Made by a program: the position numbers and the translations under genes
Notes under the pieces: generated by a model
Database searches by the model: none
The model's input: the letters and a program-made list of their open reading frames with translations, nothing else
Told to the model about the DNA's origin: nothing
DNA from: Candidatus Methylumidiphilus alinenensis
GTDB lineage: Bacteria; Pseudomonadota; Gammaproteobacteria; Methylococcales; Methylococcaceae
Reading direction: 5' to 3'
DNA: 36,573 nt
Assembly (NCBI GenBank): GCA_003242955.1
Contig: QJPH01000433.1
Location: 1 to 36,573 of the forward strand
Shown: positions 1-31,298 of the stretch, in pieces
Numbering within the stretch: position 1 is the first letter of the stretch
Layout of the letters: each line of letters opens with the position of its first letter

Positions 1-400
1 CGCTGTGATCCTCCCCAAAAACCGTGACCGCCAAGTCCACGGCAGGATTTGCAGCATCATGCAGCAAGGCAAGCGTGAAAATTGCGTAAGTCCAAAGTGC
101 TTTTTTTAGCACCGCTTCCTCGGGGGGCGCACCGGGCGGCAGCAAATGGCCTTGCCGGATGCGGAGGGCCGCAGCGGCCACACCTAGGCCATGGTCCAGC
201 GCCCCGCCGGGATAGGCACGGTGATGAACCTCGGACGCGGGCAACTGCTGCGACCATTCCGCGAAACGCCATAGCATGCTAAGGTAGTATTGCTCAAAAT
301 GCGGGCGTGTCGTGCTGGCCAGTTCCTCGATCCTGTTCACATATTCCCGGCGGGCCGACAGCAACTCCTTTGCCGACAAAACCGGGAGCGCCCCCGGCAT
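1..400 (-). CDS. MobH-type conjugative relaxase (TraI_2 domain), N-terminal part, cut by the window edge
   Basis: Reading the minus strand from an ATG at 398-400 gives an open frame that runs off the left edge. It translates as MPGALPVLSAKELL..., then QLPASEVHHRAYPGG, LDHGLGVAAAALRIRQGHLL and FTLALLHDAA. The HH...LDHGL...LLHD arrangement is typical of the N-terminal HD-hydrolase-like TraI_2 domain (DUF1528) of MobH relaxases. In integrative conjugative elements this relaxase nicks the transfer origin. The frame is open further upstream to a GTG at 458-460, so the true start is uncertain; neither start has a convincing ribosome site. The divergent recombinase gene next door supports an element end. 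The overlapping 71-aa frame in the same stretch is only a shadow. Family assignment is from motif memory, not a search. Confidence 0.72.
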   Translation of the reverse strand, partial: MPGALPVLSAKELLSARREYVNRIEELASTTRPHFEQYYLSMLWRFAEWSQQLPASEVHHRAYPGGALDHGLGVAAAALRIRQGHLLPPGAPPEEAVLKKALWTYAIFTLALLHDAANPAVDLAVTVFGEDHS

Positions 401-535
401 AGCCGGGCAGTGAGGTGGCGAGCTTGCATTGACAGAAAAATTTACAGGCGTGGGGTTCACTTCCCTAAGAAAGAGTTTGCCAAGTTTGCCAACAACAATT
501 TCAAACATGTAGTCCCGACCATAAGGAGATGCACA

Positions 536-1525
536 ATGACAGAATCGCAGGAAATCAACCTGAACAATATAGCCAGGTTAACCAAAACAAATGATACAGG
601 ACCGCCTTCAACCATCGTCGAACTTTATGAAAGATATTGTCATGAAACCATCCTGAGGGCTGCAAGCAAAGAGACCTACGGTACCGCCGTTCGTGTTTTT
701 GAACGGGATACGGGCATAACCGACCCGCGAAAAGTGAACCACGAAGCCATCCTACTTTGGAGGGATAACGTGATAAAACGAGCCAGCCTAATGACTTGGA
801 ATACCTACCGTCGTGGAATGAAGACACTTTTCAATTTTGCGGTACGGAACAAATGGCTGGAAGAAAACCTTTTCCTGAGTGTCAAGCCGGCAACCTTGAT
901 AAAGCGCAAAAAAACCTTATCCAAGAAAGCGATGAAAGAAGTCATAATGTTGTTGAAATGCGACAGTTGTCCGATATTGCCCGGATGGTTTTGGTTGACC
1001 GTGTTCAAAACCCTCTATTACACCGGAATGCGGCGGCGACAGCTTTGTGCATTGCGTTGGCGCGACATTGATTTCGACCGGAAAACGATCCTGCTTTCGG
1101 TGGAAGGCAGTAAAACCGCCCGCGAATGGGAGATACCCATCCCCGCCCAATGCGAGAAGGAACTGATCGACCTCAAGCGCGAATCGGAAGCAAGGCATGT
1201 TGGCCTGGAAAAATGCCAAGTGTTCTGGGTGCAACTGTTCGAAACCAGTTACGTAGGCCGTGAGTTGAGCCCGACTCAGTTGACTCACGCATTCGGCAGG
1301 CTATCCGATCATTTGGGCATAGCAGTCTCCCCCCACAAGCTACGCCATACCATGGCCACCGACTTGGCATCAGGGCCAAACCCGGACCTGAAATCATTGC
1401 AATATTTGTTAGGACATACTAACCTAGCCACAACCCTTGAATATGTCAACCCGGAAATGTCACAGCTTAGAGTACAATTGTCCAAGCTAAGCTTGGACTT
1501 GGACGGATTGCAAGATGTCAATTAA
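536..1525 (+). CDS. Tyrosine recombinase / phage-type integrase
   Basis: A 329-aa site-specific recombinase. The start at ATG 536 is preceded by AAGGAG at 523-528 with 7-nt spacing, which is better than the upstream in-frame start at 290. An N-terminal SAM-like core-binding domain (about residues 20-130) is followed by the catalytic domain. All catalytic positions are visible: R166 in TGMRRRQL, K193 in EGSKTAREW, H267 and R270 in PHKLRHT, H294 in LLGHTNL and the nucleophile Y303 in TLEYVN. It should cut and rejoin DNA at attachment sites through a 3'-phosphotyrosine. It is divergent from the MobH relaxase gene, so it may integrate that conjugative element, although a XerC/D-like role cannot be excluded. 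No tRNA or attachment site could be recognised beside it. Confidence 0.9.
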   Translation: MTESQEINLNNIARLTKTNDTGPPSTIVELYERYCHETILRAASKETYGTAVRVFERDTGITDPRKVNHEAILLWRDNVIKRASLMTWNTYRRGMKTLFNFAVRNKWLEENLFLSVKPATLIKRKKTLSKKAMKEVIMLLKCDSCPILPGWFWLTVFKTLYYTGMRRRQLCALRWRDIDFDRKTILLSVEGSKTAREWEIPIPAQCEKELIDLKRESEARHVGLEKCQVFWVQLFETSYVGRELSPTQLTHAFGRLSDHLGIAVSPHKLRHTMATDLASGPNPDLKSLQYLLGHTNLATTLEYVNPEMSQLRVQLSKLSLDLDGLQDVN

Positions 1526-2126: not shown

Positions 2127-4262
2127 GTGTTCATCCTTTCATACAGATTGATAATTCCATTGCCGTCTAACCAAGAAACGCTGCTAACCTGTACCCTTGT
2201 GATGGCCACCTGCTACGCAGCAGGAGCATTTGCGTCGCTGCTGGCAGCCTGGTCGGGGCGGCTTGCGTTGGTGGTAGGACATATCGCCGCTTTCGCAGGT
2301 GCTGTGGTGGGCATTGCCGTTTCACTAGGCATTCTTCTTGGCGATCCTGTTCCAACGCTGACTTTGCAACTTCCAACCCTTTTCCCGTTTGCTAGGCTTT
2401 CACTGGCCGTGGATGGACTCTCGGCCTATTTCCTGCTCGTCATCTCTCTTGTTGCGGTTGCCGCGACCCTTTACGGGCCTGCCTATCTCCAAGCCCACTC
2501 GCCCGAAGCGGGGCCGGGGCGGCGGGCTACACAAGTGCTGGCGTTGAACGTGTTCTTGGCTTGCATGGTGTTCCTTTGCTGTGCCGGTGACGCGCTAAGC
2601 TTCATTTTGTGCTGGGAAGGTATGACACTGGCAAGCTATGTCTTGGTTGTCTCTGACGATACGGATGGCGAGAACGCAAGGGCGGGGCTACTCTATATGA
2701 TTATGACCCATGCCGGGACGGCCATGCTCTTAGTTTCATTCTTAGCGTTGACCGAGCGGGCCGGGGCATTTGACTTTGCAGCCCTGCGCACTGCGGCAAG
2801 TGGGCTTGACGATAGTGCTCGGACGGCCTTGTTCTTCATGGCTCTTGTGGGTTTTGCCACCAAGGCGGGTGTGGTTCCTCTCCACGTATGGCTCCCTCGT
2901 GCACATCCTGCGGCCCCGAGCCATGTATCAGCACTGATGTCGGGTGTCATGCTCAAGGTTGCCATCTACGGAATATTGCGCTTTGGCTTCGACCTTCTGG
3001 CTCCGGCGCTTGAGCCGTTACCTTCGTCATGGGGCTGGACGATACTGGTTTTAGGCACCGCTTCTGCCGTGCTCGGTGTGCTTTACGCACTACAGCAGCA
3101 TGACCTTAAGCGCCTGCTGGCATTCCACAGCGTCGAAAATATTGGGATCATCCTGATCGGGGTCGGGCTGGCGATGATCGTATGGCGCAGGGAGGAAGTC
3201 GGCGGTACACTCGCGACCCTTGCGCTCACTGCGGCCCTCCTGCACACCGTCAACCATGCGGCTTTCAAAGGACTTCTGTTCCTAGGTGCAGGTAGCATCC
3301 TTTGCCGCACCCATGTACGCAACATGGAGGAACTTGGAGGGCTTGCCCGGCACATGCCTTGGACGGCGGGGCTATTTCTGCTTGGTGCCGTCGCCATCTC
3401 GGCCTTGCCCCCGCTCAATGGTTTTGTCAGCGAGTGGCTCACTTTCCAAGCCATCCTCGGTGGTGCGAGCATTTTTCACGGGCCATCCGGTCTAGTCATC
3501 GTCGTTTCAGCGGCACTGCTGGCACTGACAGGAGGGTTGGCCGCCGCTTGTTTTGTCAAGGCGTTCGGGGTCACTTTTCTCGGTCGCCCGCGCACACCCC
3601 ATGCAGAACACGCCACTGAGGTTCCTTTCTCAATGATCGCTGGCATGGCATGGTTAGCGGTATTGTGCGTGTTCCTCGGTGTCGCGCCGGGGTATGCGAT
3701 GCGCCTACTCGACGCGCCGACGGTGGGAATACTCCATGGCTACGGGGCAAGTGCGGTCGTGACAGCCCATGGGCCGCTGGTGCTTTCGACGGCATTGACT
3801 TTGCCGGGGGTGATGAAAGGCACCGCCATTTCCATGACGATGCTTGCCCTGCTGTTGTTAGCACTGCTACCTATCGCATGGTTCCTGCGACGTGGATTGC
3901 GGCCTTACCCGGTGCGAACGGAACCTACATGGACTTGTGGAATGAGTCCGACGGCACGGTTCGACTACACGGCAACCGCGTTTGCCAAACCGCTTAGCCT
4001 TGTCTTTGCAACACTCTACCGCCCACGCCATGAAGTAATCCGGGAGACAGCGGGGTCGCCTTATATAATAAAACGCATTCATTATTCCGGCGAAGTCGTT
4101 GACTTGGCTGAGACCCAGATTTATCACCGTGTCCAGCATGGCATTACGGCCCTCTCGAAAGCCATCCGCGACAATAGCACTGGGCGCATCCATGGGTACA
4201 TCGGGTTTGTGCTAGGGGCATTATTTTTGGCACTCTTGGTGTTTGGAGGAGGGCAAAGATGA
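2127..4262 (+). CDS. hyfB: Hydrogenase-4 component B, NuoL/Mrp-antiporter-like membrane subunit
   Basis: A 711-aa polytopic membrane protein of the NuoL/M/N family, with hydrophobic segments along most of its length. Family hallmarks are visible: a buried Glu in CWEGMTLASYVLVV, a Lys and His in ATKAGVVPLHVWLPRAHP, a Lys/His in QQHDLKRLLAFHSVENIGII and a Lys in NHAAFKGLLFLGAG. In HyfB/HycC proteins these line the proton or sodium path. The C-terminal 170 residues carry the amphipathic stretch and the last membrane helix typical of HyfB. It is the first gene of the operon and its stop overlaps the hyfC start as ATGA. The start is uncertain: GTG 2127 has no good ribosome site, and GTG 2199 or ATG 2202 would still keep the first helix. 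Confidence 0.9.
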   Translation: MFILSYRLIIPLPSNQETLLTCTLVMATCYAAGAFASLLAAWSGRLALVVGHIAAFAGAVVGIAVSLGILLGDPVPTLTLQLPTLFPFARLSLAVDGLSAYFLLVISLVAVAATLYGPAYLQAHSPEAGPGRRATQVLALNVFLACMVFLCCAGDALSFILCWEGMTLASYVLVVSDDTDGENARAGLLYMIMTHAGTAMLLVSFLALTERAGAFDFAALRTAASGLDDSARTALFFMALVGFATKAGVVPLHVWLPRAHPAAPSHVSALMSGVMLKVAIYGILRFGFDLLAPALEPLPSSWGWTILVLGTASAVLGVLYALQQHDLKRLLAFHSVENIGIILIGVGLAMIVWRREEVGGTLATLALTAALLHTVNHAAFKGLLFLGAGSILCRTHVRNMEELGGLARHMPWTAGLFLLGAVAISALPPLNGFVSEWLTFQAILGGASIFHGPSGLVIVVSAALLALTGGLAAACFVKAFGVTFLGRPRTPHAEHATEVPFSMIAGMAWLAVLCVFLGVAPGYAMRLLDAPTVGILHGYGASAVVTAHGPLVLSTALTLPGVMKGTAISMTMLALLLLALLPIAWFLRRGLRPYPVRTEPTWTCGMSPTARFDYTATAFAKPLSLVFATLYRPRHEVIRETAGSPYIIKRIHYSGEVVDLAETQIYHRVQHGITALSKAIRDNSTGRIHGYIGFVLGALFLALLVFGGGQR

Positions 4263-5200
4263 CTGGCGATAAACCGCTCGAGATCGTGCTATTGGAGATG
4301 TTCCTCCTCGTGCTGCTGGGTCCGCTGGTCACAGGCTTCATCCAGAAACTCAAAGCCCGCTTTCAGTCTAGGCGAGGAGCGGGTGTCTTGCAGCCTTACC
4401 GTGACCTCGTCAAGCTGCTAAACAAGGGGTCGGTGCAGGCGGACACCGCCTCTGGTTTTTTCCGTTCGATTCCAGTTCTTGTGCTGGCTACCACAGTGGC
4501 TGCCGGTGCCCTCGTCCCAGTCGTACAAGCCGGTCCGCCGGCTTTTCCGCTGGGCGATGCATTAATGTTACTCGGGTTGCTTTCCCTGGCACGATTTTTA
4601 ACGGCGGTTGGCGCATTGGATGCTGGCGGCGCTTTTGGTGGCATGGGTGCATCGCGGGAGATGACCATAGCTCCGCTGGTCGAGCCGGTGTTGATGATGG
4701 TCGTTTTCTCGACCGCGCTGGCCCACGGTACAACCGAACTGGGCATCCTCGCAGAACAACGCGGCGCCTCTTGGATTCTAACTTGGCGCGCGGCAGACTT
4801 CCTTGGTTTTGCGGCCATGCTTGTGTTACTCCCGGCTGAGACGGGCAGGATTCCCGTGGACAACCCGGACACCCACCTAGAATTGACGATGCTACACGAG
4901 GGAATGCTATTGGAACATTCCGGCCCAGGGCTAGGCTGCATGATGCTTGCTTCGCACACGCGCCAGATTGTAACTCTCGGGCTTGCGGCGGCACTCTTTT
5001 TTCCAATCGGGCTAGAGGATGCGGGTGTCATTGGACTGCTTCTAGGCACCTTATCTTTCGTGGCGAAAATATTGGTTCTCGCGGCCTACCTTGCGGTCAT
5101 TGAGTCCTCCTACGCCAAACTCAGGCTCTTCCAAGTGCCGCAGTATCTTGGCATCGGCTTCGTGTGCGCGCTAATGTCATTGGCGCTGAGGATACTATGA
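4259..5200 (+). CDS. hyfC: Hydrogenase-4 component C, NuoH-like membrane anchor
   Basis: A 313-aa membrane protein of the NuoH/HycD/HyfC family, which joins the peripheral hydrogenase arm to the ion-pumping subunits. Seen directly: an N-terminal helix followed by the basic loop KLKARFQSRRGAGVLQPYRD, the family motif GASREMTIAPLVEP and the acidic loop ETGRIPVDNPDTHLELTMLHE. Those conserved Glu and Asp residues are thought to couple redox chemistry to ion movement. Length matches the family (about 310 aa). The start overlaps the hyfB stop (ATGA at 4259-4262) and its own stop overlaps the hyfE start, so translation is probably coupled. Confidence 0.93.
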   Translation: MTGDKPLEIVLLEMFLLVLLGPLVTGFIQKLKARFQSRRGAGVLQPYRDLVKLLNKGSVQADTASGFFRSIPVLVLATTVAAGALVPVVQAGPPAFPLGDALMLLGLLSLARFLTAVGALDAGGAFGGMGASREMTIAPLVEPVLMMVVFSTALAHGTTELGILAEQRGASWILTWRAADFLGFAAMLVLLPAETGRIPVDNPDTHLELTMLHEGMLLEHSGPGLGCMMLASHTRQIVTLGLAAALFFPIGLEDAGVIGLLLGTLSFVAKILVLAAYLAVIESSYAKLRLFQVPQYLGIGFVCALMSLALRIL

Positions 5201-5853
5201 GCATCGAAATAGTCCATAGGATCATCAACGACTTCGGCGCACTGCTGCTGTTCACGATGATCCTCATCGTCGCGGCGAACCAGATATCCGGTGCCATTTA
5301 TGCCGTGGCCGCGCAGTCGCTGTTCATCGCCATTGCAGGCGCAGTGCTGGCTACGGCCACCGGGAATGTGGATCTCTGGATAATCGCAGGCATTACCCTT
5401 ATTGTCAAGGCCATGGTGTTGCCATGGTTGCTGTTGTGGGTGATTCGGCGCATGGATGTCAAACGCGAGGTGGAACCGGTGATCCCCACTCTGACTACAC
5501 TGGCTCTCGCCATGGTCGTCGTGGTGATGTCATTCCATCTGAGTGCCTCACTAGACACTGTGCGCCAGACAATCACCGGCAATGCGCTACCGGTCGGCAT
5601 CGCCCTCACCCTGAATGGCGTACTGGTCATGGCAACCCGGAAGACGGCACTGAGCCAGATGGTTGGCCTGTTTTCCTCGGAAAACGGCATATTTTTCACG
5701 GCCATGGCGGTGAATAAAGGCATGCCGCTAATTATCGAAATTGGCGTAATCCTTGATGTCATACTCGCCGTGTTGGTTATGACCATCATGGTGCTTAGGG
5801 TCCGTTCGACGGTCGATGCCGACATTGCGGACCTACACAGGCTGAGGGGATGA
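5197..5853 (+). CDS. hyfE: Hydrogenase-4 component E, small membrane subunit
   Basis: A 218-aa membrane protein matching HyfE of E. coli (216 aa) in size and pattern. It starts at ATG 5197, which overlaps the hyfC stop as ATGA; an in-frame ATG at 5164 inside hyfC is less likely. It has about seven hydrophobic segments. Conserved-looking polar residues within membrane stretches are the Lys in ITLIVKAMVLPWLL, the Glu in FSSENGIFF and the Glu and Asp in LIIEIGVILDVIL. HyfE resembles NuoK fused to extra helices and belongs to the membrane arm. The gene ends in two tandem TGA codons directly before hyfF. Confidence 0.9.
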   Translation: MSIEIVHRIINDFGALLLFTMILIVAANQISGAIYAVAAQSLFIAIAGAVLATATGNVDLWIIAGITLIVKAMVLPWLLLWVIRRMDVKREVEPVIPTLTTLALAMVVVVMSFHLSASLDTVRQTITGNALPVGIALTLNGVLVMATRKTALSQMVGLFSSENGIFFTAMAVNKGMPLIIEIGVILDVILAVLVMTIMVLRVRSTVDADIADLHRLRG

Positions 5854-5856
5854 TGA

Positions 5857-7320
5857 ATGGCTGAGATGCTAATCTGGGTTATTCCCCTGGTACCGACCTT
5901 AACTGCATTACTGATGCTCACGACGGGCAACCGCCGTATTTTATCAGGACTGGATATCGGCGGTTCGTCAGTTTTGGTTGTGCTTACCTTCATCCTCGCT
6001 CACGAGGTGGCGGCTAGTGGCCCACAAGCTTTTGGGGTATTCCGCATAGACGACCTAGGACTCATTTTTCTCCTGCTTCTTGTCGTCCTTACGTTGGCGG
6101 TTTCCATCTACACGGTGGGATGGCTCAAACAGGCAGTGGAGGTCGGCAATATGAAGGCCGAGACGCTTCGTTATTACTTCCCCCTCGTACAGGCTTTTGT
6201 CGCCACCATCGTCGTGACGATTCTCGCCGATAATCTCGGAATCCTGTGGATTGCGATGGAAGGGACGACAATCACCTCGGCCGTGCTGATTGGCTACCAC
6301 GGCCATCATCATGGCTTGGAAGCGGCGTGGAAATACATTATTGTAACCACTATCGGCATCTCTTTTGGACTTTTTGGCACGGTGATTATCTATGCCGCCG
6401 CCTCCAATGTGATGGGGGCGGCGAGTTCGATGAGTTGGTCGGCTATTATGAATGTCGCCCATAGACTCGACCCCGGCATTGTCAGAATCGGCTTTATTTT
6501 CGCGATGGTCGGCTATGGGACCAAGGCAGGGCTTGCACCCATGCATTTATGGTTGCCGGATGCCCATAGCCAAGCCCCGACACCTGTTTCGGCACTGCTC
6601 TCGGGTATCCTAATCAAGTGTGCCATCCTCGCAATAATCCGCTTCCAAATGATTACTGCTGCTGCTTGCGGTGCGGCATTTCCGCAACAGGTGATGCTAG
6701 TTTTCGGCGTCATCTCGGTCGTTGTGGCAATGCCCTTCATCTTGGCCCAGCGTGACCTTAAGCGCCTCTTAGGTTATAGCAGTGTTGAACACGTTGGCAT
6801 CATAGCCCTCGGTCTCGGTTTTGGCGGTGCGGTCGGTACCTACGGTGCATTACTGCATGTAGTGAACCACGGCATCACCAAGGCCATCGCATTCTTGGCC
6901 GCCGGCAAGGCCATAGCCCGTTACGATTCACGTGACTTGCAATCCATCAAGGGTTTGTTCACTGTCGCCCCGACTTGCGCGACACTACTCATGATTGCAT
7001 TTTTGTCGCTCGCAGGTGTGCCACCGTTCTCTATTTTCATCAGCGAATTGATGGTGCTACGAGCAGGTATCGGTCACGGCAATTGGGTATCCATCGCCAT
7101 CTTCCTCGCCATGGCTGTAATAATATTTGCCGGACTGCTCCATCATGCCGGTGCGATGGTATTCGGAAAGCCGACAGTGACGGCAAGCCGTGAACCCGAG
7201 GCGCGGTCCCCGCTGTTCGCCATGCTACTACTCGCAGCCATCATGATCTTATTTGGGCTGACCATCCCCGCAACCTTCGACGGGTATCTGCAACGTGCCA
7301 CGGAGATTGTCATTGGCTGA
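5857..7320 (+). CDS. hyfF: Hydrogenase-4 component F, second NuoL/M/N-like antiporter subunit
   Basis: A 487-aa polytopic membrane protein, the second Mrp-like pump subunit of the operon. ATG 5857 is preceded by GAGGGGA at 5844-5850. Hallmarks: Glu in IAMEGTTITSAVLIGYHGHH, Lys/His in YGTKAGLAPMHLWLPDAHSQ, Lys in AQRDLKRLLGYSSVEHVGII and Lys in VNHGITKAIAFLAAG. E. coli HyfF is slightly longer (about 526 aa). With hyfB it gives two putative ion channels; no hyfD homologue is present, so the complex should be smaller than E. coli hydrogenase-4 but larger than formate hydrogenlyase-1. The 3' end overlaps or abuts the hyfG start. Confidence 0.92.
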   Translation: MAEMLIWVIPLVPTLTALLMLTTGNRRILSGLDIGGSSVLVVLTFILAHEVAASGPQAFGVFRIDDLGLIFLLLLVVLTLAVSIYTVGWLKQAVEVGNMKAETLRYYFPLVQAFVATIVVTILADNLGILWIAMEGTTITSAVLIGYHGHHHGLEAAWKYIIVTTIGISFGLFGTVIIYAAASNVMGAASSMSWSAIMNVAHRLDPGIVRIGFIFAMVGYGTKAGLAPMHLWLPDAHSQAPTPVSALLSGILIKCAILAIIRFQMITAAACGAAFPQQVMLVFGVISVVVAMPFILAQRDLKRLLGYSSVEHVGIIALGLGFGGAVGTYGALLHVVNHGITKAIAFLAAGKAIARYDSRDLQSIKGLFTVAPTCATLLMIAFLSLAGVPPFSIFISELMVLRAGIGHGNWVSIAIFLAMAVIIFAGLLHHAGAMVFGKPTVTASREPEARSPLFAMLLLAAIMILFGLTIPATFDGYLQRATEIVIG

Positions 7321-9037
7321 CCAACCCCTAATTGACGTAACCGTTCACTCTCCCCCTGGGAGCGCGGGCGTCCCGCCCGCCAAAATTGCGGCCAAGATGG
7401 CCTCGCTCCCAGGAAAAGGCAGGGGGGTTGAACGGTTACTAATAGACGTACTGAGGGCCGGCTCGGTTGGCTCAGTCAATGCCGAAACCGGGCCACGGCC
7501 CTCGGACATAACCGTTCGTCTCGGTGAAAAGAACGATCTTGCCAGCGCAGTTGCCATGCTGACTGGGCAATTCACCATGACGCTGGCCACCATCGTGGCA
7601 ACGGACGAGACGGCGATGCCGGATGGCGATCTTAAGGTACGTTATGTCTTCGAGCATACTACAGCCGATGCCCCGGACCAGTTTGTGACGCTGGTCGTGT
7701 CCGTCGATGCCACCAGCCCTGAAGTGCCGTCCCTGACGACAGCGGTCCCGGCCGCAAACTGGCATGAGCGCGAGATGCGAGACCTCTTTGGGATTATTCC
7801 CGTCGGGCATCCCGACCCTCGCACATTGGTCTTACATGACGGATGGCCGCAAGGCATCTTCCCGTTCCGCAAGTCTTTTGATGGATCGCAACGCGTTCCC
7901 GTTGAACCCGCCGATGAGTTTCCGCATATGGTTGCCGAAGGCGAAGGAGTTTTTGAAATACCGGTCGGCCCAATCCATGCTGGCATCATCGAACCGGGAC
8001 ACTTCCGCTTCACTTCGTGCGGCGAGACGGTGCTTCTTCTTGACGCACGCCTGTTTTACACGCACCGTGGGTTGGAGAAGCGGATGGAAGGCATTTCTCC
8101 GCTTGATGCATTCTACATCGCCGAGCGTATCTGTGGAGTCTGCTCGGTCGCTCATGGCTTAGGTTACTGCGAAGCCCTTGAACAGATTGCCGGTGTCGAT
8201 GTGCCTAAACGGGCACGGCTAATCAGAAGCATCGCGCTGGAATTGGAAAGGCTCTACAATCACATTGGTGATATTGGCAATATCTGCGCCGGTGCGGCAT
8301 TCCACTATGGCACCGCCAACGGAATGCGATTGAAGGAACGCCTACAGCAGATGAACGAGCGGCTTGCCGGCAATCGTTTCCTTCGCGGCATTGTGATCCC
8401 CGGTGGGGTACGCTTGGAAATTCCGAGCCACCTTCTTGAAGTTATTTCAGTCACCCTACAGGAAGTGCTTGTCGAGTTTGATAGTTTGATGGGGCGCATT
8501 GAAGCCAATCCGTCCGTCGTAGATCGCTTCGACGATACCGGCATCCTGCAAAACCAAGCCGCGCAGGACCTCGCCGTCGCCGGTGTTGCAGCGCGGGCGA
8601 GCGGCGTGAACCGCGATGCCCGTCGCGACCATCCCCATGCGGCGTTTTTAGAGTCTAATCCGCCCAAACTGAACGTAGTGACAGCCATGGCAGGAGACGC
8701 GATGGCCAGGGTGACGGTTCGCGCCCAAGAAGTCAGGGAGTCGATAAGGCTGGTTGGCGAATTTGCCAGACGATTAACGCCGGGACCGTTAAAGGTATGC
8801 ATGAATGAACCGCTGCCGAGTTGGCGCATCGGGATTTCGGCCATCGAGTCGCCACGCGGCGAGGCGGTCCACTGGCTGCGCACCGATGCAGAAGGCCGCG
8901 TTGACCGCTACCATCTCCGCTCGCCTAGCTACCATAACTGGCCCGCAGTGGCACTAGCCGCCGAGACATCTATAGTCCCGGATTTTCCGCTCGTCAACAA
9001 GAGCTTTGAACTGTGCTATTCGTGTACGGATCGCTGA
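7313..9037 (+). CDS. hyfG: Group 4 [NiFe]-hydrogenase large subunit (NuoC-NuoD fusion)
   Basis: A HyfG/HycE-like large subunit of 574 aa from TTG 7313, which has GGAG at 7302-7305; a GTG at 7295 would add six residues. The N-terminal part is NuoC-like (HEREMRDLFGIIP). The C-terminal part is NuoD/hydrogenase-like, with GPIHAGIIEPGHFRF and the nickel-ligand motifs ERICGVCSVAH (C274, C277) and ELCYSCTDR (C568, C571). All four ligand cysteines are kept, although the usual DPC reads ELC. The protein ends at the Arg where E. coli HycE is cut during maturation, so no removable C-terminal tail is encoded. Residues about 10-46 derive from a 103-bp repeat inserted in frame (7337-7439). The gene lies inside the operon and overlaps hyfF. 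Confidence 0.9.
   Translation: MADQPLIDVTVHSPPGSAGVPPAKIAAKMASLPGKGRGVERLLIDVLRAGSVGSVNAETGPRPSDITVRLGEKNDLASAVAMLTGQFTMTLATIVATDETAMPDGDLKVRYVFEHTTADAPDQFVTLVVSVDATSPEVPSLTTAVPAANWHEREMRDLFGIIPVGHPDPRTLVLHDGWPQGIFPFRKSFDGSQRVPVEPADEFPHMVAEGEGVFEIPVGPIHAGIIEPGHFRFTSCGETVLLLDARLFYTHRGLEKRMEGISPLDAFYIAERICGVCSVAHGLGYCEALEQIAGVDVPKRARLIRSIALELERLYNHIGDIGNICAGAAFHYGTANGMRLKERLQQMNERLAGNRFLRGIVIPGGVRLEIPSHLLEVISVTLQEVLVEFDSLMGRIEANPSVVDRFDDTGILQNQAAQDLAVAGVAARASGVNRDARRDHPHAAFLESNPPKLNVVTAMAGDAMARVTVRAQEVRESIRLVGEFARRLTPGPLKVCMNEPLPSWRIGISAIESPRGEAVHWLRTDAEGRVDRYHLRSPSYHNWPAVALAAETSIVPDFPLVNKSFELCYSCTDR
7337..7439. mobile_element. 103-bp MITE inserted in frame in hyfG
   Basis: Perfect 11-bp terminal inverted repeats GTAACCGTTCA (7337-7347) and TGAACGGTTAC (7429-7439). 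Flanks are TAATTGAC (7329-7336) and TAATAGAC (7440-7447), an 8-bp direct repeat with one mismatch. Insert plus duplication is 111 bp, exactly 37 codons, without a stop. The interior pairs CTGGGAGCG...CGCTCCCAG and matches the copies at 19365 and 31129. Confidence 0.88.
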
Positions 9038-9038
9038 C

Positions 9039-9848
9039 ATGTTGAGAATACTTTTTAACGCTTTGCGCACCGGTGTGGTCACGACCAACTATCCCGCAGT
9101 GCCGAATGTACCGCCTGAACGTTTTCGTGGGCAACCTCTATTTAGCTCAAGCAATGGCTTGCCTCCGCCCGAAGTCTGTCCGACGGCTGCTTTATCGGAA
9201 CATCTTGATGCCAAGGGTCGCCGCCACCTAGCCCTAGACCTTGCACGTTGTGTCTTCTGTGGTCGCTGCACCGAAGATCAATGGGCCGGCGCGGTTGCCG
9301 CAGGAAGGGACTTCGAACTCGCGGCGCGTCACCGTGCAGACCTGCGGATTGAAATTGCTGATGACGGCACTGCCTTCCCAGCGGCGGGGCTGGCTGCAAA
9401 CTCGGAAGCCGAAGCTGCCCGTGCCTCTGCCGAGATTCACCGGGTGTTGGGCCGTTCGCTGCATCTTCGCCATCTCGACGCTGGCTCCTGTAACGCCTGT
9501 GACTGGGAACTCACCGCCTTGTTGAACCCGGTGTACGATGTCCGTCGCCTCGGCATTGATTTTGTTGCTTCCCCGCGCCATGCGGACGGGGTTGTGATCA
9601 CTGGCCCGATCACGCGTAACCTTGAAACTGCCGTCCGTCGCACCATCGACGCCGTCCCCGCCCCGCGTATCGTGATCGCCGTGGGGGCTTGTGCAACAGG
9701 TGGCATTTTTGGGGAGGGCTACGCCAACCTTGGCGGTGTCGATCAAGTGCATCCAGTCGATGTCTATATCCCCGGTTGCCCTCCACGCCCGGAGGCTATC
9801 ATCTATGGCATCCTTGTCGCAATGGGGCGGCTGGAATCCCGAATTTAA
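9039..9848 (+). CDS. hyfI: Fusion of a one-cluster ferredoxin domain and NuoB-like hydrogenase small subunit
   Basis: A 269-aa protein starting at ATG 9039, two nucleotides after the hyfG stop. The C-terminal half (from about residue 140) is the HyfI/HycG/NuoB-like small subunit, with proximal-cluster ligands in DAGSCNACDWE, AVGACATGG and YIPGCPPRPEA. The N-terminal 100 residues resemble HyfH/NuoI ferredoxins but are reduced: only C47 (in CPTAA) and C71, C74, C77 (CVFCGRC) remain. In two-cluster ferredoxins those four positions ligate a single [4Fe-4S] cluster, so one cluster may persist. Together with hyfG it forms the catalytic arm. It is the last gene of the operon; no separate hyfH is present. 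Confidence 0.85.
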   Translation: MLRILFNALRTGVVTTNYPAVPNVPPERFRGQPLFSSSNGLPPPEVCPTAALSEHLDAKGRRHLALDLARCVFCGRCTEDQWAGAVAAGRDFELAARHRADLRIEIADDGTAFPAAGLAANSEAEAARASAEIHRVLGRSLHLRHLDAGSCNACDWELTALLNPVYDVRRLGIDFVASPRHADGVVITGPITRNLETAVRRTIDAVPAPRIVIAVGACATGGIFGEGYANLGGVDQVHPVDVYIPGCPPRPEAIIYGILVAMGRLESRI

Positions 9849-10218: not shown

Positions 10219-10270
10219 ACGCAACGTAAAAGCGCACCTGATTAGAAGTTGTTTCAGCTAAACCCAAAAC

Positions 10271-10315
10271 GCCGTCATTCCGGCATGGATCGCCGGAATC
10301 CAGATTGCAGGGATG
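10271..10315. repeat. REP-like hairpin
   Basis: ATTCCGGC (10277-10284) pairs with GCCGGAAT (10292-10299). The surrounding GCCGTCATTCCGGCATGGAT is the same core found inside the elements at 10663 and 19453. Confidence 0.6.
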
Positions 10316-10330
10316 TGCTACCATGCCAGA

Positions 10331-10423
10331 ATGGAAAAACAACCTTGCGTATATCTTCCTGCCAGTCACCGCCTTGGAACGCTTTATATTGGTGTAACCT
10401 CCAATCTGATAAAGCGCATCTAA
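10331..10423 (+). pseudogene. GIY-YIG endonuclease remnant, truncated after 30 codons
   Basis: From ATG 10331 the frame reads MEKQPCVYLPASHRLGTLYIGVTSNLIKRI and then stops. This matches the first strand and helix of small GIY-YIG nucleases, which read roughly VYILASxRNGTLYIGVTxDLxxR. The usual protein is about 90-100 aa, so two thirds are missing; the following sequence shows no continuation in any frame. A REP-like hairpin lies just upstream. Too short to be functional. A longer open frame over the same bases in another phase is a shadow. Confidence 0.65.
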
Positions 10424-10662
10424 ACCGAATTGTGGAAGCACTGAGGCAAAAAGAACGTGAGTCAAATCATATTCAATTAAATCCTGGGCCTAAATTGCTT
10501 TTTTCAGAAATGCCCATCGTCACGGCAGCGGAAGCGGTTCGGCGAGTCGGAGTTAGTCGCAGAGGGTAAGCTGTTATGCACCAATATGAATTTTATGCAC
10601 CAATGCTGGACATAGATGAAAGCTTCTCTATCGCATCAGAAGCTACCCTGCACCTCGCTGCA

Positions 10663-11822: not shown

Positions 11823-14800
11823 ATGGCAATACATGTTGGCATAGACCATATAACGACCTACCGTTTTGATCGCGACGTCATGTTGTCGCCACACTTGATC
11901 CGCCTGAGACCTGCTCCCCATTCGCGTACCCCGATACACGAATATCGGCTAGACATTAGCCCTGCCGATCACCGCATTTACTGGCAGCAAGACCCCTTTG
12001 GCAACTGGGTTGCGCGGGTCGTGCTTCCAAAGCCCGTGCGTACACTGAAAGTCGGCGTTCATCTGATTGCCGAAATGACGGTCATCAACCCGTTCGATTT
12101 TTTTGTCGAAAAGTACGCCGAGCAATATCCGTTTCAATATGACGCTCTGCTTCGGCAGGAGCTTGAACCCTACTTCGAAATCACTGAGAAAGGCCCGTTG
12201 CTGACAGCTTGGCTTGCCAAGGTATCACATAAGAAGTGTCGTATTGTCGATTTTCTGGTACAACAAAACAGCCGTTTGAATGGCGATATCAATTACACCA
12301 TCAGGCTGGACCCAGGCATACAGACTTGCGAAGAAACGCTTGAGAAGTCTCTTGGCTCGTGTCGGGACACTGGCTGGCTATTAGTGCAGATACTCAGGTC
12401 TTTGGGGTTGGCTGCCCGCTTCGTGTCTGGTTATCTGGTGCAACTAACGGCGGACCAGAAGGCGCTGGATGGGCCTTCCGGGCCAGAGGAAGACTTTACC
12501 GACTTGCATGCCTGGGCCGAAGTGTACATCCCCGGTGCCGGTTGGGTCGGCCTAGATCCCACCTCGGGGCTGTTTGCAGGCGAGGGCCATATTCCCCTGT
12601 CTTGTACACCCGACCCGGTCAGTGCCGCTCCGATCACAGGCTTTACCGACAAATGCGAGGTTGAGTTCGAATACAGCAATGTGGTGCGGCGAGTGTTGGA
12701 AGACCCCCGCGTCACCAAGCCCTATACGGAAGAACAATGGAAGGATATCCAAGTCTTAGGGCAGGCCATGGATGCTGAAATAGAAGCGCTGGACATACGC
12801 CTTACCATGGGAGGTGAACCCACTTTTGTATCCATAGATGACATGGAGAGCCCCCAATGGAACACTGATGCCTTGGGCGGACATAAACGCGAGCGGGCCG
12901 GTGAGTTGGTAAAGCGGCTCAAATCGAAATTCGCGCCGGGTGCATTACTCCACTACGGTCAAGGCAAATGGTATCCGGGCGAGCCTTTGCCTCGTTGGGC
13001 TTTGGGATGTTACTGGCGGACTGACGGAGAACCGCTGTGGAAAAACGACGAGTTAATAGCCGATGAGCAAAAGGATTACGGCATCAATCACGAACAGGCT
13101 TGCCGATTTGCTGAAAGTTTGGCTACCCGGTTGGGCATTGGGCCTAGGTTTCTGGTTGCGGGTTTTGAGGACTGGATTTATTATCTCTGGCAGGAGGCTA
13201 ACCAGCCCGTCAATCTCGATTTGGACAAAACTGCCGATGCCGCAATAAAGCGTGATGGCTTGGGCTTAGTGCTTTCACGGGGGTTAGACAAGCCTACAGG
13301 ATATGCCCTTCCGCTAGGATGGGACTGGGTGAAAGGCGGATGGCGGTCCGGGGCTTGGACCTTTAGCCGGGAACAGATGTACCTGATGCCGGGTGGCTCG
13401 CCCATGGGGTTGCGCTTGCCTATCTCGCAACTGCCTTGGGCGCAGGCGGTTGAGCAGGAAGTTGTCGAATATTTGACACCACCAACTCCGCTTTTGCCGC
13501 TTGTCCCAACTACGGGAACTGCCGAGCCTCGGTCAAGGCTTTCGACATTGGCTGTTGACGACAAGCCAGAGGCTATCCGCAAACGCTACCAGTATTGGAC
13601 CGGTGTTCCTCATACCGCGCTTTGCTTGGAACCCCGCAATGGAAGGCTGTACGTCTTCATGCCACCGATCAATGAGCTTTGGCGCTATGCTTTACTGCTC
13701 CAAGCCATCGAACAAACTGCTGAAGAACTTGATATTCCGGTTTTGATTGAAGGTTATGAACCACCAAACGCACCGGGATTGCGGGTTTTAAAAGTGACAC
13801 CGGACCCAGGCGTAATCGAAGTAAACATCCATCCAGCCTCCACTTGGAACGAACTCGAAGCCAGCACAGTTGAACTCTACGAGGAAGCGCGTCTGTCCCG
13901 GTTGGGTGCTGAAAAGTTCATGCTCGACGGACGCCACACCGGAACTGGCGGCGGTAATCATGTCACCTTGGGCGCGGCAGAGCCTCAGGACAGTCCTTTT
14001 TTGCGTAGGCCCGACCTGCTGCGCTCACTGGTTACATATTGGCAACATCACCCTTCCTTGTCCTATCTTTTTTCGGGCCTTTTTATCGGCCCAACTTCGC
14101 AGGCACCTAGAATTGACGAACAAGGCAGCAGGATTCTGGATGAACTGGAAGTCAGCCTAAACGAAATAGACCGGACGAATTCGCCATGGGTGGTTGATCG
14201 TGCCTTGCGCAATTTTTTGGTTGATCTTACGGGCAACACCCACCGCGCTGAATTTTCCATTGACAAGCTTAATTCGCAGGATTCTGCATCGGGCAGGCAA
14301 GGCTTGCTGGAGTTTCGCGGATTTGAGATGCCCCCCCACGCACACATGAGCTTGGCTCAGATACTATTGCTGCGAGCACTCGTTGTGCGTTTCTGGAAGC
14401 AGCCCTACCGACAACCATTGGCTCGCTGGGAGACGGCCAAGCATGACCGTTTCATGCTACCCCATTATATCTGGTCCGATTTTTCGGGTGTCATCGCGGA
14501 TATTAACGAAGCGGGTTATCCGGTAAGTTTGGATTGGTATGCACCCTTCCATGAATTTCGCTTTCCAGTGTTTGGACGGGTCAACTATGCAGGGGTGGCG
14601 TTGGAACTGCGCATGGCGCTGGAGCCATGGCTGGTGCTTGGAGAGGAAACCGTGGCCCATCGGCAAGCACGGGTGGTTGATTCGGCATTGGAAAGGCTGC
14701 AAGTCACCGTCAGTGGGTTTGACAAAGAACGTTTTCTTTTGACATGCAATGGTCGCAGGCTGCCGCTCCAGCCTATAAGCGCTGATGGTGACTATGTGGC

Positions 14801-15176
14801 CGGGGTGCGTTACAAGGCTTGGAAGGCCGTGTTTGGACTGCATCCGACCGTGGAGGTCCATGCTCCCTTGGTGTTCGATTTGTTCGACCGCCGCCTGGGC
14901 AAGTCCGTTGGCGGGTGTGTTTATCACGTTGCCCATCCCGGTGGGCTTGCCTATGAGACCTTCCCGATTAATGCCTACGAGGCTGAAACGCGGCGGGTTT
15001 CGCGCTTTTGGGACTGGGGGCACACGGCCGGCACCGCCCCGCTGCCTGCTTGGGCAGAATCGCTTAAAGCTTACCAACCCACACAGGACCGGAGCGCACT
15101 GCGGGAACCCCCGCCGGAGCGGGACAATCCGGCTTATCCCTATACGCTAGACTTACGCTGGCTGCCACTGCCATGA
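11823..15176 (+). CDS. Transglutaminase-like protease fused to DUF2126 (putative amidoligase), active-type copy
   Basis: A 1117-aa cytoplasmic protein without a signal peptide. Residues 1-90 match the bacterial transglutaminase N-terminal domain (YRFDRDVMLSPHLIRLRPAP). The transglutaminase-like core follows with a full triad: C180 in GSCRDTGWLL, H229 in DLHAWAEVY and D245 in GLDPTSG. The rest is DUF2126, with TMGGEPTFVS, HTGTGGGNHVTLG and EFRGFEMPPHAHM; Pfam describes this domain as a putative amidoligase. Such proteins are predicted to make or cleave peptide-type amide bonds; the substrate is unknown. The usual partners (DUF403 alpha-E protein and circularly permuted ATP-grasp) are not in the window. 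The stop overlaps the start of the next gene (ATGA at 15173-15176). Confidence 0.9.
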   Translation: MAIHVGIDHITTYRFDRDVMLSPHLIRLRPAPHSRTPIHEYRLDISPADHRIYWQQDPFGNWVARVVLPKPVRTLKVGVHLIAEMTVINPFDFFVEKYAEQYPFQYDALLRQELEPYFEITEKGPLLTAWLAKVSHKKCRIVDFLVQQNSRLNGDINYTIRLDPGIQTCEETLEKSLGSCRDTGWLLVQILRSLGLAARFVSGYLVQLTADQKALDGPSGPEEDFTDLHAWAEVYIPGAGWVGLDPTSGLFAGEGHIPLSCTPDPVSAAPITGFTDKCEVEFEYSNVVRRVLEDPRVTKPYTEEQWKDIQVLGQAMDAEIEALDIRLTMGGEPTFVSIDDMESPQWNTDALGGHKRERAGELVKRLKSKFAPGALLHYGQGKWYPGEPLPRWALGCYWRTDGEPLWKNDELIADEQKDYGINHEQACRFAESLATRLGIGPRFLVAGFEDWIYYLWQEANQPVNLDLDKTADAAIKRDGLGLVLSRGLDKPTGYALPLGWDWVKGGWRSGAWTFSREQMYLMPGGSPMGLRLPISQLPWAQAVEQEVVEYLTPPTPLLPLVPTTGTAEPRSRLSTLAVDDKPEAIRKRYQYWTGVPHTALCLEPRNGRLYVFMPPINELWRYALLLQAIEQTAEELDIPVLIEGYEPPNAPGLRVLKVTPDPGVIEVNIHPASTWNELEASTVELYEEARLSRLGAEKFMLDGRHTGTGGGNHVTLGAAEPQDSPFLRRPDLLRSLVTYWQHHPSLSYLFSGLFIGPTSQAPRIDEQGSRILDELEVSLNEIDRTNSPWVVDRALRNFLVDLTGNTHRAEFSIDKLNSQDSASGRQGLLEFRGFEMPPHAHMSLAQILLLRALVVRFWKQPYRQPLARWETAKHDRFMLPHYIWSDFSGVIADINEAGYPVSLDWYAPFHEFRFPVFGRVNYAGVALELRMALEPWLVLGEETVAHRQARVVDSALERLQVTVSGFDKERFLLTCNGRRLPLQPISADGDYVAGVRYKAWKAVFGLHPTVEVHAPLVFDLFDRRLGKSVGGCVYHVAHPGGLAYETFPINAYEAETRRVSRFWDWGHTAGTAPLPAWAESLKAYQPTQDRSALREPPPERDNPAYPYTLDLRWLPLP

Positions 15177-18100
15177 GCACACGCATTGCACTAACCCATC
15201 GAATTGACCTACAGTTCAACCGGCAGGTTCAAGTATCCACCCATTGGTTGCGTCTTCGCCCGGCTCCGCACACCAAAGCGATGCTTGAGGCATACTCGCT
15301 TAAAGTGGAGGCGGAGCCCAATTTCCTCAACTGGGTTCGCGACCCTTACGAGAATTACCTTGCCCGCTTGGACCTCCCCGAACCTGTTGCACGGTTTGGC
15401 TTGGTGGTCGAGGTGATTGCCACGCTGACGCCGGTCAATCCGTTCAATTTTTTGGTTGAACCTTATGCGTTCAAGTTTCCGTTTAAATATCCAGCGCAAC
15501 TTGCCAGAGAACTCGCCCCTTACTTGCAGGTTGGCCTCACTGGCCCTAGGCTTGCCGCTTGGCTGTCCGGTTTGGCGATGGCGCCGGGCAATATCACAGA
15601 ACGCCTGGGCGAACTTAATCTAAAGCTTTGCAAGGCATTTCCTGATCGTCATGAAACCAGCCTAGGCAGGGTTGACCTTGAGGCGATGTTAGATAAAGGA
15701 CTCGCTTCATCTAGCGACATGGCTTGGCTGTTGACATTAAGCCTTCGTAGCTTGGGGCTGGCCGCCCGTTTCACCTCGGGCTACCTGATTATGTTATCCC
15801 CGCCCGAGGGCGGATTGGATACGGCAAAGTTACATGCCTGGGCCGAAGTTTATTTACCGGGCGCAGGCTGGATTGGCTTGGACCCTGCCATTGGCATCTA
15901 TACGGCAGAATGCCACATTCCTTTGGCCTCGGCCCCCGAGCCTCTGCGGACACTACCCATGGCCGGCTATTTTGAAGCATGCGATGAAACCCAGACCGAG
16001 AGCATAGCATTGAGCCGTTTGGTCCCGCAGCCCGTTTCCTGGCCCTACGGTGAAACCCAGTGGGCCGACATAAGGGCTATGGGCGGAAAAATTGACGCTG
16101 CTTTGAACGCCCAATCGGTGAATCTGTCTTTAGGGTTGGATCTTTCTTTTGTGTCAACGAATAACTCGGGCGAACAGGAATGGACAACGGCGGCGTTAGG
16201 GCCAGACAAGCGGATAGTTGCGGATAGGCTGTTGGACCGCCTGAGCAAGGGCATAGCCCCTGGCGGGGTGCTGCATTTGGGACAAAGTGACTGGTACGCC
16301 GGCGAAGCCCTGCCGCGCTGGCGCTTGGGATGTTTTTTCCGTGCCGACGGCGTACCGGTCTGGCGTAACCAAGAACTGCTCGGTTTCCGCCAGGCTTCCT
16401 TCCCCATCAGCTCGTCCGATACGAAGCGTTTTACCGAACTATTGGCTACTGAGTTGGGTATTGCACTGAGTTTTATCCATTCGGCGCATGAAGACGGTTT
16501 GCATCAACTGTGGATGAATCGCGACATCTTTGACTACCTGCCAGCCATGGAGGATTTGCTCGAACCTGCGCGGAGGCAAGCACTCGCAGAGCTTCTTTCA
16601 CACAACCAAGGCGAACCGGTAGGCTTTGTATTGCCGTTGCGCTGGGACGGTGTGGCATCACGTTGGACTAGCGGAAACTGGGCATTCCGCCGCAATTGTT
16701 TGTATTTGAATCCGGGTGATTCTTCGATAGGGTATCGACTGCCCTTGGAAAGCTTGCCGGTGGGTGCGCAGTCCCCAGTGGAACCCGACCCGGATCGCTG
16801 CCATTTTGAAGAAAGGCAAGCATTGGCAGCGCTTGGCGGGGAACTGAGCGGCAGATTCTCGTCATTTGCCACCGATCCTGTTCCAAACAACGAGGCGGCC
16901 GATGCCGAAGATATTGATTCATCGCGCCCACCCAGGACAGCTATTTGCATCCAAGTCCGCCAAGGCCGGTTGTTTGTTTTTCTGCCGCCTTTGACGCATC
17001 TTGAACATTATTTGGACTTGGTTGCGGCAATAGAGGCTACCGCGACAAAAATACGCATTCCAATCATGCTTGAGGGATACGAGCCGCCCGAGGATTACCG
17101 TTTATGCCGCCTCATAGCCCAACCTGAACCAGGGATACTAAAGCTGTCGCTACCCGACGTCCAAGGATTCGAGCGACAGCAGCAACTGGTCGCAGCCACT
17201 TATCGCGAAGCCGAGCAGTGTGGGCTAAGGGCAGAGCGCATATTGACTGACGGCAAACGTGAACCCCCCGGTGGCCGTTCTGAAATTCGCTTGGGCGGCA
17301 TTACACCGTCGCAAAGCCCGTTTTTGCAACGGCCTGAATTGCTTCGTTCGCTTATCGTATATTGGCAACGGCATCCCAGTCTGTCTTATTTATTCAGTGG
17401 CCGCTCGATTGGTCCGGGGGGCGCGGCTCCGCGCCCTGACGAAGGCCGCGACGATGCATTGTATGAGTTGGCAACGGCCTTGCAACGTTTTCCATCCGGT
17501 GAGAATCCCCTACCCTGGGTGCCTGACCGACTGCTACGCCATTTACTCGCGGATGCGGCTGGCGATGTGAAGCGGGCAGAGATACGCATCGACCGCTTGT
17601 ATCCCCCGGAACGATCCGGTGTGCGCTTGGGACGGATAGTGATCCGGTCATTTGAAGCCCCCCCTCATGCCCAGATGGCAGGGCTGCAATCTCTGTTAGT
17701 CAAGGGCATTCTGGCTCATATGGCTCAGACACCGCTAACGCATGATTTGACCGACTGGGGTCCAGCGTTGCATGACCGCTTCATGTTGCCGCGGATTTTG
17801 TGGGAAGACCTAAAGACCGTACTTCGTGAACTTGATGGAGCAGGGTTTCCATTTCAGCCTGATTGGTTCAAGCCTTTCTTGGATTTGCGTTTTCCAGTTT
17901 TGGGGCAGGTCCAAAAGGGCGAGATTGGGTTGCAGCTTCGCTACGCACACGAACCTTGGCCGGTGCTTGCCGAGGAAACGACGGCATCGGGTGTCGCCCG
18001 TTTTGTCGACTCGGCCAATGCCAGGGTGGAAGTCGTGTGCACCGGTTTGACACCCTCGCGTTACGCACTGATATGCAATGGCCGCCGAGTGCCTTTGCAA

Positions 18101-19239: not shown

Positions 19240-19364
19240 GTTCCAAGCCCCGGATCGCCGTTACACACAAGTCCAGCCAAACCGGAAAATCCGTCATTTC
19301 GGCATGGATGCCGAAAACCAGGCCATGGATGGTAACAAGTCGGTTGTGCAGTGCTTGATTCAGG
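19240..19364. repeat. Dispersed repeat, shared with 36302-36430
   Basis: Shares CACAAGTCCAG, CCGTCATTTCGGCA, CCAGGCCATGGA and GTCGGTTGTGCAGTGCTTGA with the right end of the window, in the same order and orientation. The 103-bp-type element begins exactly where this similarity ends. Confidence 0.7.
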
Positions 19365-19446
19365 GTAAGCGTTCACCCCCCTGGGAGCGAGGGCGTCTCG
19401 CCCGCTGAAATAGCGGCCAAGATGGCCGCGCTCCCAGGATAAAGGC
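19365..19446. repeat. Truncated copy of the 103-bp MITE
   Basis: Starts GTAAGCGTTCAC and runs through CTGGGAGCG to CGCTCCCAGGA and AAAGGC, in the same orientation as the hyfG copy. The right terminal inverted repeat is missing; the next element (19453) begins a few bases later. Confidence 0.75.
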
Positions 19447-19452
19447 CACTGC

Positions 19453-19585
19453 CATTAAGTTAAGGAAAAACCCGTCGTTCCGGCAGGGAATGCCGGAACC
19501 CAGAGGCCATGGAGGGCGAGCTAGATTCACCTCCCTGTGTTCTGGATACCGGCAATCCATGCCGATATGACGGCTTAACTTAATG
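19453..19585. repeat. MITE-like repeat, ATTAAGTTAAG ends, type-2 core
   Basis: Ends CATTAAGTTAAG (19453-19464) and CTTAACTTAATG (19574-19585); similarity of the ends extends outward (CACTGCC against GGCGGTG). The core matches 10663-10794. Length 133 bp. Confidence 0.8.
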
Positions 19586-19693
19586 GCGGTGACGCCGGAG
19601 CGTGGGAACGTCAAACATTTGTGTATAAAGACGAGATATGGAGTTAGGGAACGAGCAGAATGCTGTAATTGCAAAAAGCATAATTTATAAACA

Positions 19694-31128: not shown

Positions 31129-31231
31129 CCGTAAGCGTTCACTCCCCCCTGCCTTTTCCTGGGAACGCGGCCATCTTGGCCGCCATTTCAGCGGGCGAGA
31201 CGCCCGCGCTCCCAGGGGGAAGTGAACGCTT
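31129..31231. mobile_element. Complete 103-bp MITE, intergenic copy
   Basis: Perfect 13-bp ends GTAAGCGTTCACT (31129-31141) and AGTGAACGCTTAC (31219-31231). Flanks CATGAACC (31121-31128) and CATGGGCC (31232-31239) form an 8-bp direct repeat with two mismatches. Same length as the hyfG copy but inverted inside. Confidence 0.85.
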
Positions 31232-31298
31232 ACCATGGGCCTTACAACCTTGTAGTATGTCGGGCGCAAAGAGCCACGCCCCAACCACATGGCTAGGC

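What the first reader, a model, noticed from the sequence alone, without database searches (positions are those of the whole stretch)
7329..7447. A 103-bp MITE inserted in frame inside a hydrogenase large-subunit gene
The element has perfect 11-bp inverted ends and an 8-bp near-identical flanking duplication (TAATTGAC / TAATAGAC). Insert plus duplication is 111 bp, exactly 37 codons with no stop. The protein therefore shows a duplicated LIDV on both sides of repeat-encoded residues (VTVHSPPGSAGVPPAKIAAK...). Non-coding repeats that become part of a core metabolic enzyme are rare; this one seems tolerated at the N-terminal edge of the NuoC-like domain.
Basis: seen in the sequence. Interest (0 to 1): 0.82.

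Follow-up and report, generated by a model that had tools for sequence, protein, structure and literature searches.

The report
Jumping DNA element inside hydrogenase gene
A small mobile DNA element landed in frame near the start of a hydrogenase gene of an uncultured, probably methane-oxidising bacterium, so the enzyme is predicted to carry 37 extra amino acids; the same element sits in frame inside several other genes of this genome, a rare but already described way of lengthening proteins.

Summary
A 103-bp element (7337-7439) with perfect 11-bp inverted ends lies between 8-bp duplications (7329-7336, 7440-7447; 7 of 8 identical). I extracted 83 copies from this genome; 46 of 67 with both ends have a perfect 8-bp duplication. 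The 37 codons are absent from the 22 homologous loci inspected (of 36 found), among them three congeners. Start codon (TTG 7313; ATG in two homologues) and ribosome-binding site lie upstream and are conserved, so the element should be translated. GTAA(C/G)CG ends, 8-bp duplications and an IS66 transposase gene with near-matching ends make it an IS66-type MITE.

Rarity is overstated. In this genome the element is also read through in about ten other genes or gene starts (VanZ-like, M50 protease, oxidoreductase, CIS tape-measure and others), and in two genes of congeners. A 103-bp copy has essentially one open phase and 103+8 = 111 bp, so about one coding insertion in six stays open; apart from this gene, 6 of 9 recognisable genes did (P = 0.001). 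It works like Rickettsia palindromic elements: a new member of a known kind. Translation and enzyme activity are inferred, not shown.

The parts
7337..7439 (+). 103-bp MITE (GTAACC subfamily), read in frame as residues 9-42 plus the first base of codon 43 of the hydrogenase
7337..7347 (+). left terminal inverted repeat GTAACCGTTCA
7429..7439 (-). right terminal inverted repeat
7329..7336 (.). 8-bp target-site duplication, left copy TAATTGAC
   Evidence: empty site in congeners
7440..7447 (.). 8-bp target-site duplication, right copy TAATAGAC (7 of 8 identical)
7313..9037 (+). hyfG-like [NiFe] hydrogenase large subunit gene, 574 codons, TTG start
7302..7305 (+). GGAG ribosome-binding site, 7 nt before the TTG start; the CACGGAG motif is kept in most homologues
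7397..7399 (+). in-frame ATG inside the element (possible but unsupported alternative start)
7422..7427 (+). G6 run in the element; the G tract and total length vary among copies
5857..7320 (+). hyfF-like membrane subunit gene, stop TGA overlapping the hyfG start
31131..31233 (-). second full copy of the same MITE family in the window (GTAAGC subfamily), outside long ORFs
19365..19465 (+). partial copy of the same family (matches element positions 1-84)

Best explanation
An IS66-type MITE, a non-autonomous 103-bp element presumably mobilised in trans by an IS66-family transposase, inserted eight codons after the start of a hydrogenase large-subunit gene and duplicated 8 bp. Because 103 + 8 = 111 bp and the element entered in the one phase without stops, the reading frame continues. 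The protein should gain 37 residues as a mostly disordered N-terminal tail; the duplicated LIDV restores the start of the first helix of the NuoC-like domain. Shown: insertion, duplication, copy family, empty sites, open frame, conserved start signal. Inferred: mobilisation by IS66, translation of the tail, unimpaired function. The gene is one of a set of frame-compatible survivors in this genome.
For: Copy family and 8-bp duplications. Empty site in congeners G001, G003 and G004 and in the 22 homologous loci inspected (these three among them), with the ribosome-binding motif and TTG/ATG mostly kept upstream. IS66: own-genome IS66 transposase gene (PF03050) between GTAACCGTTTACCCCCCC and GTAACCGTTTAGCCCCCC, 16 and 17 of 18 bases equal to the MITE subfamily end; the literature gives IS66 as GTAAGCG ends with 8-bp repeats. 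Intact gene: dN/dS 0.086 against G004; changes on the window branch 138 synonymous and 43 nonsynonymous, on the G004 branch 137 and 41; both CxxC pairs present. Structure model: residues 1-36 pLDDT below 50, helix 35-50, ten-residue block means 86-94 for residues 41-170. Recurrence.
Against: No expression or peptide data. The insertion is probably young relative to the branch: the nearest copies differ at 4 of 102 aligned bases, so an unselected gene would have about a one-in-six chance of showing no nonsense change (inference, which gives 0.25 at 3% and 0.10 at 5%). The branch counts therefore do not prove constraint after the insertion. The IS66 copy with matching ends lacks a target duplication and its transposase gene looks frameshifted. 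The element RNA is a strong hairpin (-63.5 kcal/mol, z -6.5) that could lower expression.
Confidence: 0.88

Rival explanations
1. Translation starts at the ATG inside the element (7397), so that the MITE replaces the start and the protein gains 17 residues in place of the original first eight.
For: An in-frame ATG exists at 7397.
Against: No purine-rich ribosome-binding site directly precedes it (AAAATTGCGGCCAAG), while the GGAG + TTG start is conserved upstream across genomes, with ATG in the TTG position in L047 and L061.
Confidence: 0.07
2. The hydrogenase is being inactivated: the insert, or its hairpin in the polycistronic mRNA, blocks expression, and the open frame is only recent chance.
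For: Strong RNA hairpin eight codons after the start; the insertion is young relative to the branch.
Against: All 574 codons are open and the neighbouring operon ORFs are intact; no excess of nonsynonymous change on the branch; leaving this gene out, 6 of 9 recognisable genes hit by the family stay in frame, against about 1 in 6 expected (P = 0.001).
Confidence: 0.12
3. Assembly or binning artefact joining a repeat to the gene.
For: The assembly has 597 contigs and the element is multicopy.
Against: Both flanks are the same gene in correct order, a target duplication is present, and the nearest copies differ at 4 of 102 bases. No reads were available to test it.
Confidence: 0.03

Closest known systems
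Rickettsia palindromic elements (RPE)
   Same: Short palindromic mobile repeats inserted in frame in unrelated protein genes, each encoding a recurrent peptide (as described in the review PMC10969869, passages read)
   Different: About 150 bp and from Rickettsia; here 103 bp, in a Methylococcaceae-related genome, with clear 8-bp target duplications and a likely IS66 parent. No sequence comparison with RPEs was made.
Enterobacterial RU-1, RU-2 and RU-3 repeats (ERIC-like MITEs)
   Same: Mobile repeats with open frames found intragenically; RU-3 is also 103 bp (PMC2759123, abstract and discussion read)
   Different: The RU paper reports fusions to superfamily proteins at C-terminal regions and none inside conserved domains; here most in-frame insertions are N-terminal or internal, and one lies inside a CIS_TMP profile match. 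No sequence comparison was made.
IS66-family insertion sequences (ISBst12-like, single transposase ORF)
   Same: GTAA-type ends, 8-bp duplications (PMC11946415 and PMC12898284, passages read)
   Different: The MITE carries no transposase gene. Only its two ends were compared with 14 IS66 loci; the interior was not.

Membership tests
MITE | short, multicopy, terminal inverted repeats, no transposase gene | tested here: met
   83 distinct copies extracted; 98-105 bp in the 67 with both ends (which admitted only 97-106 bp)
MITE | target-site duplication of fixed length | tested here: met
   8 bp; 46 of 67 full-ended copies perfect, 56 of 67 with at least 6 of 8, 11 of 67 with 4 or fewer; shuffled control
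IS66-type MITE | ends GTAAGCG-like and 8-bp duplication | tested here: met
   GTAAGC in 41 and GTAACC in 20 of 67 copies; criterion from PMC11946415
IS66-type MITE | an IS66 transposase gene with matching ends in the genome | tested here: met
   L133 726-2462, ends 16/18 and 17/18 identical to the GTAACC subfamily end; this copy lacks a target duplication
IS66-type MITE | mobilised by IS66 transposase | not testable with these tools
   needs a transposition assay
Rickettsia palindromic elements | in-frame insertion in many unrelated protein genes | tested here: met
Rickettsia palindromic elements | homology to one of the RPE families | not tested
   no RPE sequence was compared; not filed as an RPE

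The most novel reading that the evidence does not exclude
In this bacterial genus a transposase-driven MITE family has become protein-compatible: its ends carry stops in two phases but leave one phase open in both orientations, and the 103-bp form plus an 8-bp duplication equals 37 codons, so that insertions repeatedly add a similar peptide to enzymes, and selection keeps the frame-compatible form of the family.
Probability: 0.12. Interest if true: 0.65.

Novelty: new member of a known kind. Interest (0 to 1): 0.42.

Why it matters
It adds a Methylococcaceae-related lineage to the few places where mobile repeats are reported as coding segments, with congener empty sites and a candidate transposase family, so the age, frame bias and protein effects of such insertions become countable. 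About ten in-frame cases in one genome, including a hydrogenase catalytic subunit, give a natural series for asking where proteins tolerate a 37-residue insert.

Tried and rejected
An IS66 fragment in a congener (L143) seemed to carry a MITE-like end (94% over 31 bp), but the sequence shows an IS66 copy inserted into a MITE copy, so it is not evidence of descent. The congener gene at L221 looked in frame, but its true start is probably downstream of the element; not counted. C158, C73, C9:7764 and C89:14648 have long open frames, but the element lies before or at the likely gene start or in an upstream extension; not counted. TSD scores allow shifted boundaries and are inflated, so they were not used. 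The attempt to compare the C82 gene with its neighbouring paralogue picked the same ORF twice and shows nothing; only the contiguous match speaks for an insert-free paralogue. I considered that the common 103-bp length shows selection for 111-bp insertions; copies are related by amplification, so length counts prove nothing. Paper searches that gave nothing on the same case: MITE + IS66 (8 papers; two opened as passages; PMC12888890, also in that listing, seen as passages, mentions a MITE beside an IS66 remnant), Methylococc + miniature inverted-repeat (one paper, on Methylobacterium, listing only), hydrogenase + in-frame insertion + transposable element + MITE (none). (methanotroph group 4 hydrogenase) led nowhere.

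Full report
Observation. The element is at 7337-7439, 103 bp, with perfect 11-bp inverted ends, between 8-bp copies TAATTGAC and TAATAGAC. The ORF reads through it without a stop. Insert plus duplication is 111 bp, so 37 residues are added and LIDV appears twice.

Family. A DNA search of the same genome (6.57 Mb, 597 contigs) gave 40 places at E up to 1.4e-29 and weaker ones (only 40 of 155 candidates scored), a second search added more (40 of 170 scored), and 83 distinct copies were extracted (eight reverse-strand duplicates removed). Peptide searches gave 104-117 matches at E up to 0.001 (150 candidates scored in each, a few copies matched twice), so the family has roughly 100 or more members. 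Of 67 copies with both ends, 46 have a perfect 8-bp duplication, 56 at least 6 of 8, and 11 have 4 or fewer. Sixteen of the 83 were left out there because an end was missing or altered, among them two of the in-frame copies (C55:1505, C10). In the first 50 full copies 34 were perfect, against a mean of 0.74 after shuffling flanks. Relatives: 12 of 61 genomes (this one included) and 5 of 26 genera have a match; near-full-length copies occur in two of those genera, the others match mainly the core. G001 and G002 of the same genus have none.

Empty site. In congeners G004, G001 and G003 the gene (80-83% protein identity) lacks the insert exactly there. All 22 loci examined (of 36 found; the rest are partial or distant) lack the insert. 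They come from Methylococcaceae, Acidobacteria, Betaproteobacteria, Solirubrobacteraceae and other MAGs; L039-L041 are the three congeners again, some loci are near-identical pairs, three (L053-L055) lack the surrounding N-terminal stretch and L059 is divergent there, so they are fewer than 22 independent witnesses.

Start codon. TTG 7313 overlaps the hyfF stop (TGA 7318-7320) and follows GGAG (7302-7305). This CACGGAG...TTG arrangement recurs in most homologues (not in L057 and L059, for example); L047 and L061, near-identical here, have ATG in its place. In frame, the only ATG, GTG or TTG codons nearby are 7295, 7307, 7313, 7397 (inside the element) and then 7556, residue 82, and residues before 82 are conserved in the close homologues. 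Translation is thus expected to cross the element. The ATG at 7397 has no ribosome-binding site.

Is the gene still constrained? dN/dS against G004 is 0.086; changes assigned to the window branch are 138 synonymous and 43 nonsynonymous, to the G004 branch 137 and 41; both nickel-binding CxxC pairs are present. The insertion is probably much younger than the branch (nearest copies differ at 4 of 102 bases), so this shows an intact gene but does not prove constraint after the event.

Structure. AlphaFold2 on a 17-sequence alignment (mean pLDDT 76.8, pTM 0.80) gives residues 1-36 below 50, a helix at 35-50, and block means of 86-94 for residues 41-170, the NuoC-like domain. The tail is predicted disordered and the duplicated LIDV joins the first helix. 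The model is also weak at 197-243 and 553-574.

Origin. IS66 elements are described with ends starting GTAAGCG and 8-bp repeats (PMC11946415, passages); a single-ORF ISBst12-type member also made an 8-bp repeat (PMC12898284, passages). In this genome an IS66 transposase gene lies between GTAACCGTTTACCCCCCC and GTAACCGTTTAGCCCCCC (L133 726-2462); these match the GTAACC-subfamily MITE end at 16 and 17 of 18 bases. That copy has no target duplication and its reading frame appears shifted, so it may be a dead relative of the active partner. Of the 14 IS66 loci in this genus, two in congener G005 have ends of their own kind and perfect 8-bp duplications.

Not alone. The 83 copies were taken without regard to frame. 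With at least 24 codons on either side and an ORF of at least 250 aa once the element is left out, 15 qualify besides the shortened C32 element; seven stay open and eight are broken (P = 0.007 against 1/6). With 30 codons on either side, which leaves hyfG itself out, it is 6 of 13 (P = 0.013). Open: hyfG, a coiled-coil membrane protein with a 55%-identical neighbour (C82), VanZ-like (C55:1505), M50 peptidase (C26), CsgG (C10, near the N-terminus; its start might lie downstream), pyridine-nucleotide oxidoreductase (C385) and a contractile-injection tape-measure protein (C55:17395, where the Pfam match spans the insert). Broken: C8, C155, C376, C1, C165, C9, C58, C115; three of these have a Pfam match (C376 was not scanned), one of them probably hit upstream of the start (C165) and one near its end and without a clear duplication (C8). 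A random coding insertion of these copies would stay open with probability 1/6. Among recognisable genes (Pfam or paralogue), 7 of 10 are open, P = 0.0003; leaving out hyfG, the starting point, 6 of 9, P = 0.001. Genes broken long ago may be missed. Further in-frame cases were found because they are open, and so are not in that test: an ATPase-like protein (C352) and a TPR-like protein (C393), both 103 bp with 7-of-8 duplications (labels are my reading, no family search), a GH17 protein with a shortened 52-bp element (C32) and an OmpA-like gene near its start (C186; label is my reading). In congeners: a TIR-domain protein (G004, L229) and an adhesin-like protein (G006, L243) (labels are my reading).

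Empty sites of the other cases. The GH17 gene lacks the element in five congeners and one paralogue. CsgG of G004 lacks it, though the N-terminus there is diverged. For the VanZ-like and M50 genes no orthologue was found in the genus. The remaining cases were not compared; for them the evidence is the element and its duplication.

Why always the same phase. Ends GTAA... and ...TTAC put TAA or TGA stops in two phases. Of 28 copies of 103 bp, 28 are open in phase 0 in one orientation and 20 in the other, and only one in any other phase. In-frame products therefore run typically V(T/S)VH ... ERL.

Age. Among copies with at least 6 of 8 matching duplication bases, 1 of 7 in-frame copies is perfect against 45 of 52 others (Fisher P = 0.0002). 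Restricted to full-ended copies, which keeps five in-frame copies, it is 1 of 5 against 45 of 62 (P = 0.03; 0.003 if only copies with 6 or more matches count). In-gene survivors look older. The comparison was made after seeing the data, and older copies partly entered the sample through the end-pattern search.

Comparison. RPEs and enterobacterial RU repeats do the same (PMC10969869, passages; PMC2759123, abstract and discussion); one original RPE paper was sought and is not held. The finding is a real and well-supported instance of a known phenomenon, in a new lineage and with an assigned transposase family.

Noticed in passing
window 290-1525 and 2127-9848: A probable tyrosine recombinase ORF (my reading, no family search) lies directly upstream of the hydrogenase-4-like operon, whose large subunit is about 80% identical in MAGs labelled Acidobacteria, Solirubrobacteraceae and Betaproteobacteria: recent horizontal transfer or MAG contamination.
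   Followed up: no
window 7422-7427: G6 run within the element; the tract varies in length among copies, so slippage could switch the hydrogenase frame.
   Followed up: no
window 7337-7439 (RNA): The transcript of the element folds into a strong hairpin (-63.5 kcal/mol, z -6.5) near the hyfF-hyfG junction, which might reduce hyfG translation.
   Followed up: partly
window 10249-10569: ORF containing RHSGMDRRNPD, a peptide that looks like another repeat family; a similar HIGMDCRYPE stretch occurs in the ORF at 19360-19938.
   Followed up: no
L143 1324-1370 (congener G006): An IS66 copy inserted into a MITE copy of this family.
   Followed up: yes
window 11823-15176 and 15173-18484: Two adjacent, overlapping ORFs of 1117 and 1103 aa that look like diverged duplicates of one another (read by eye).
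   Followed up: no
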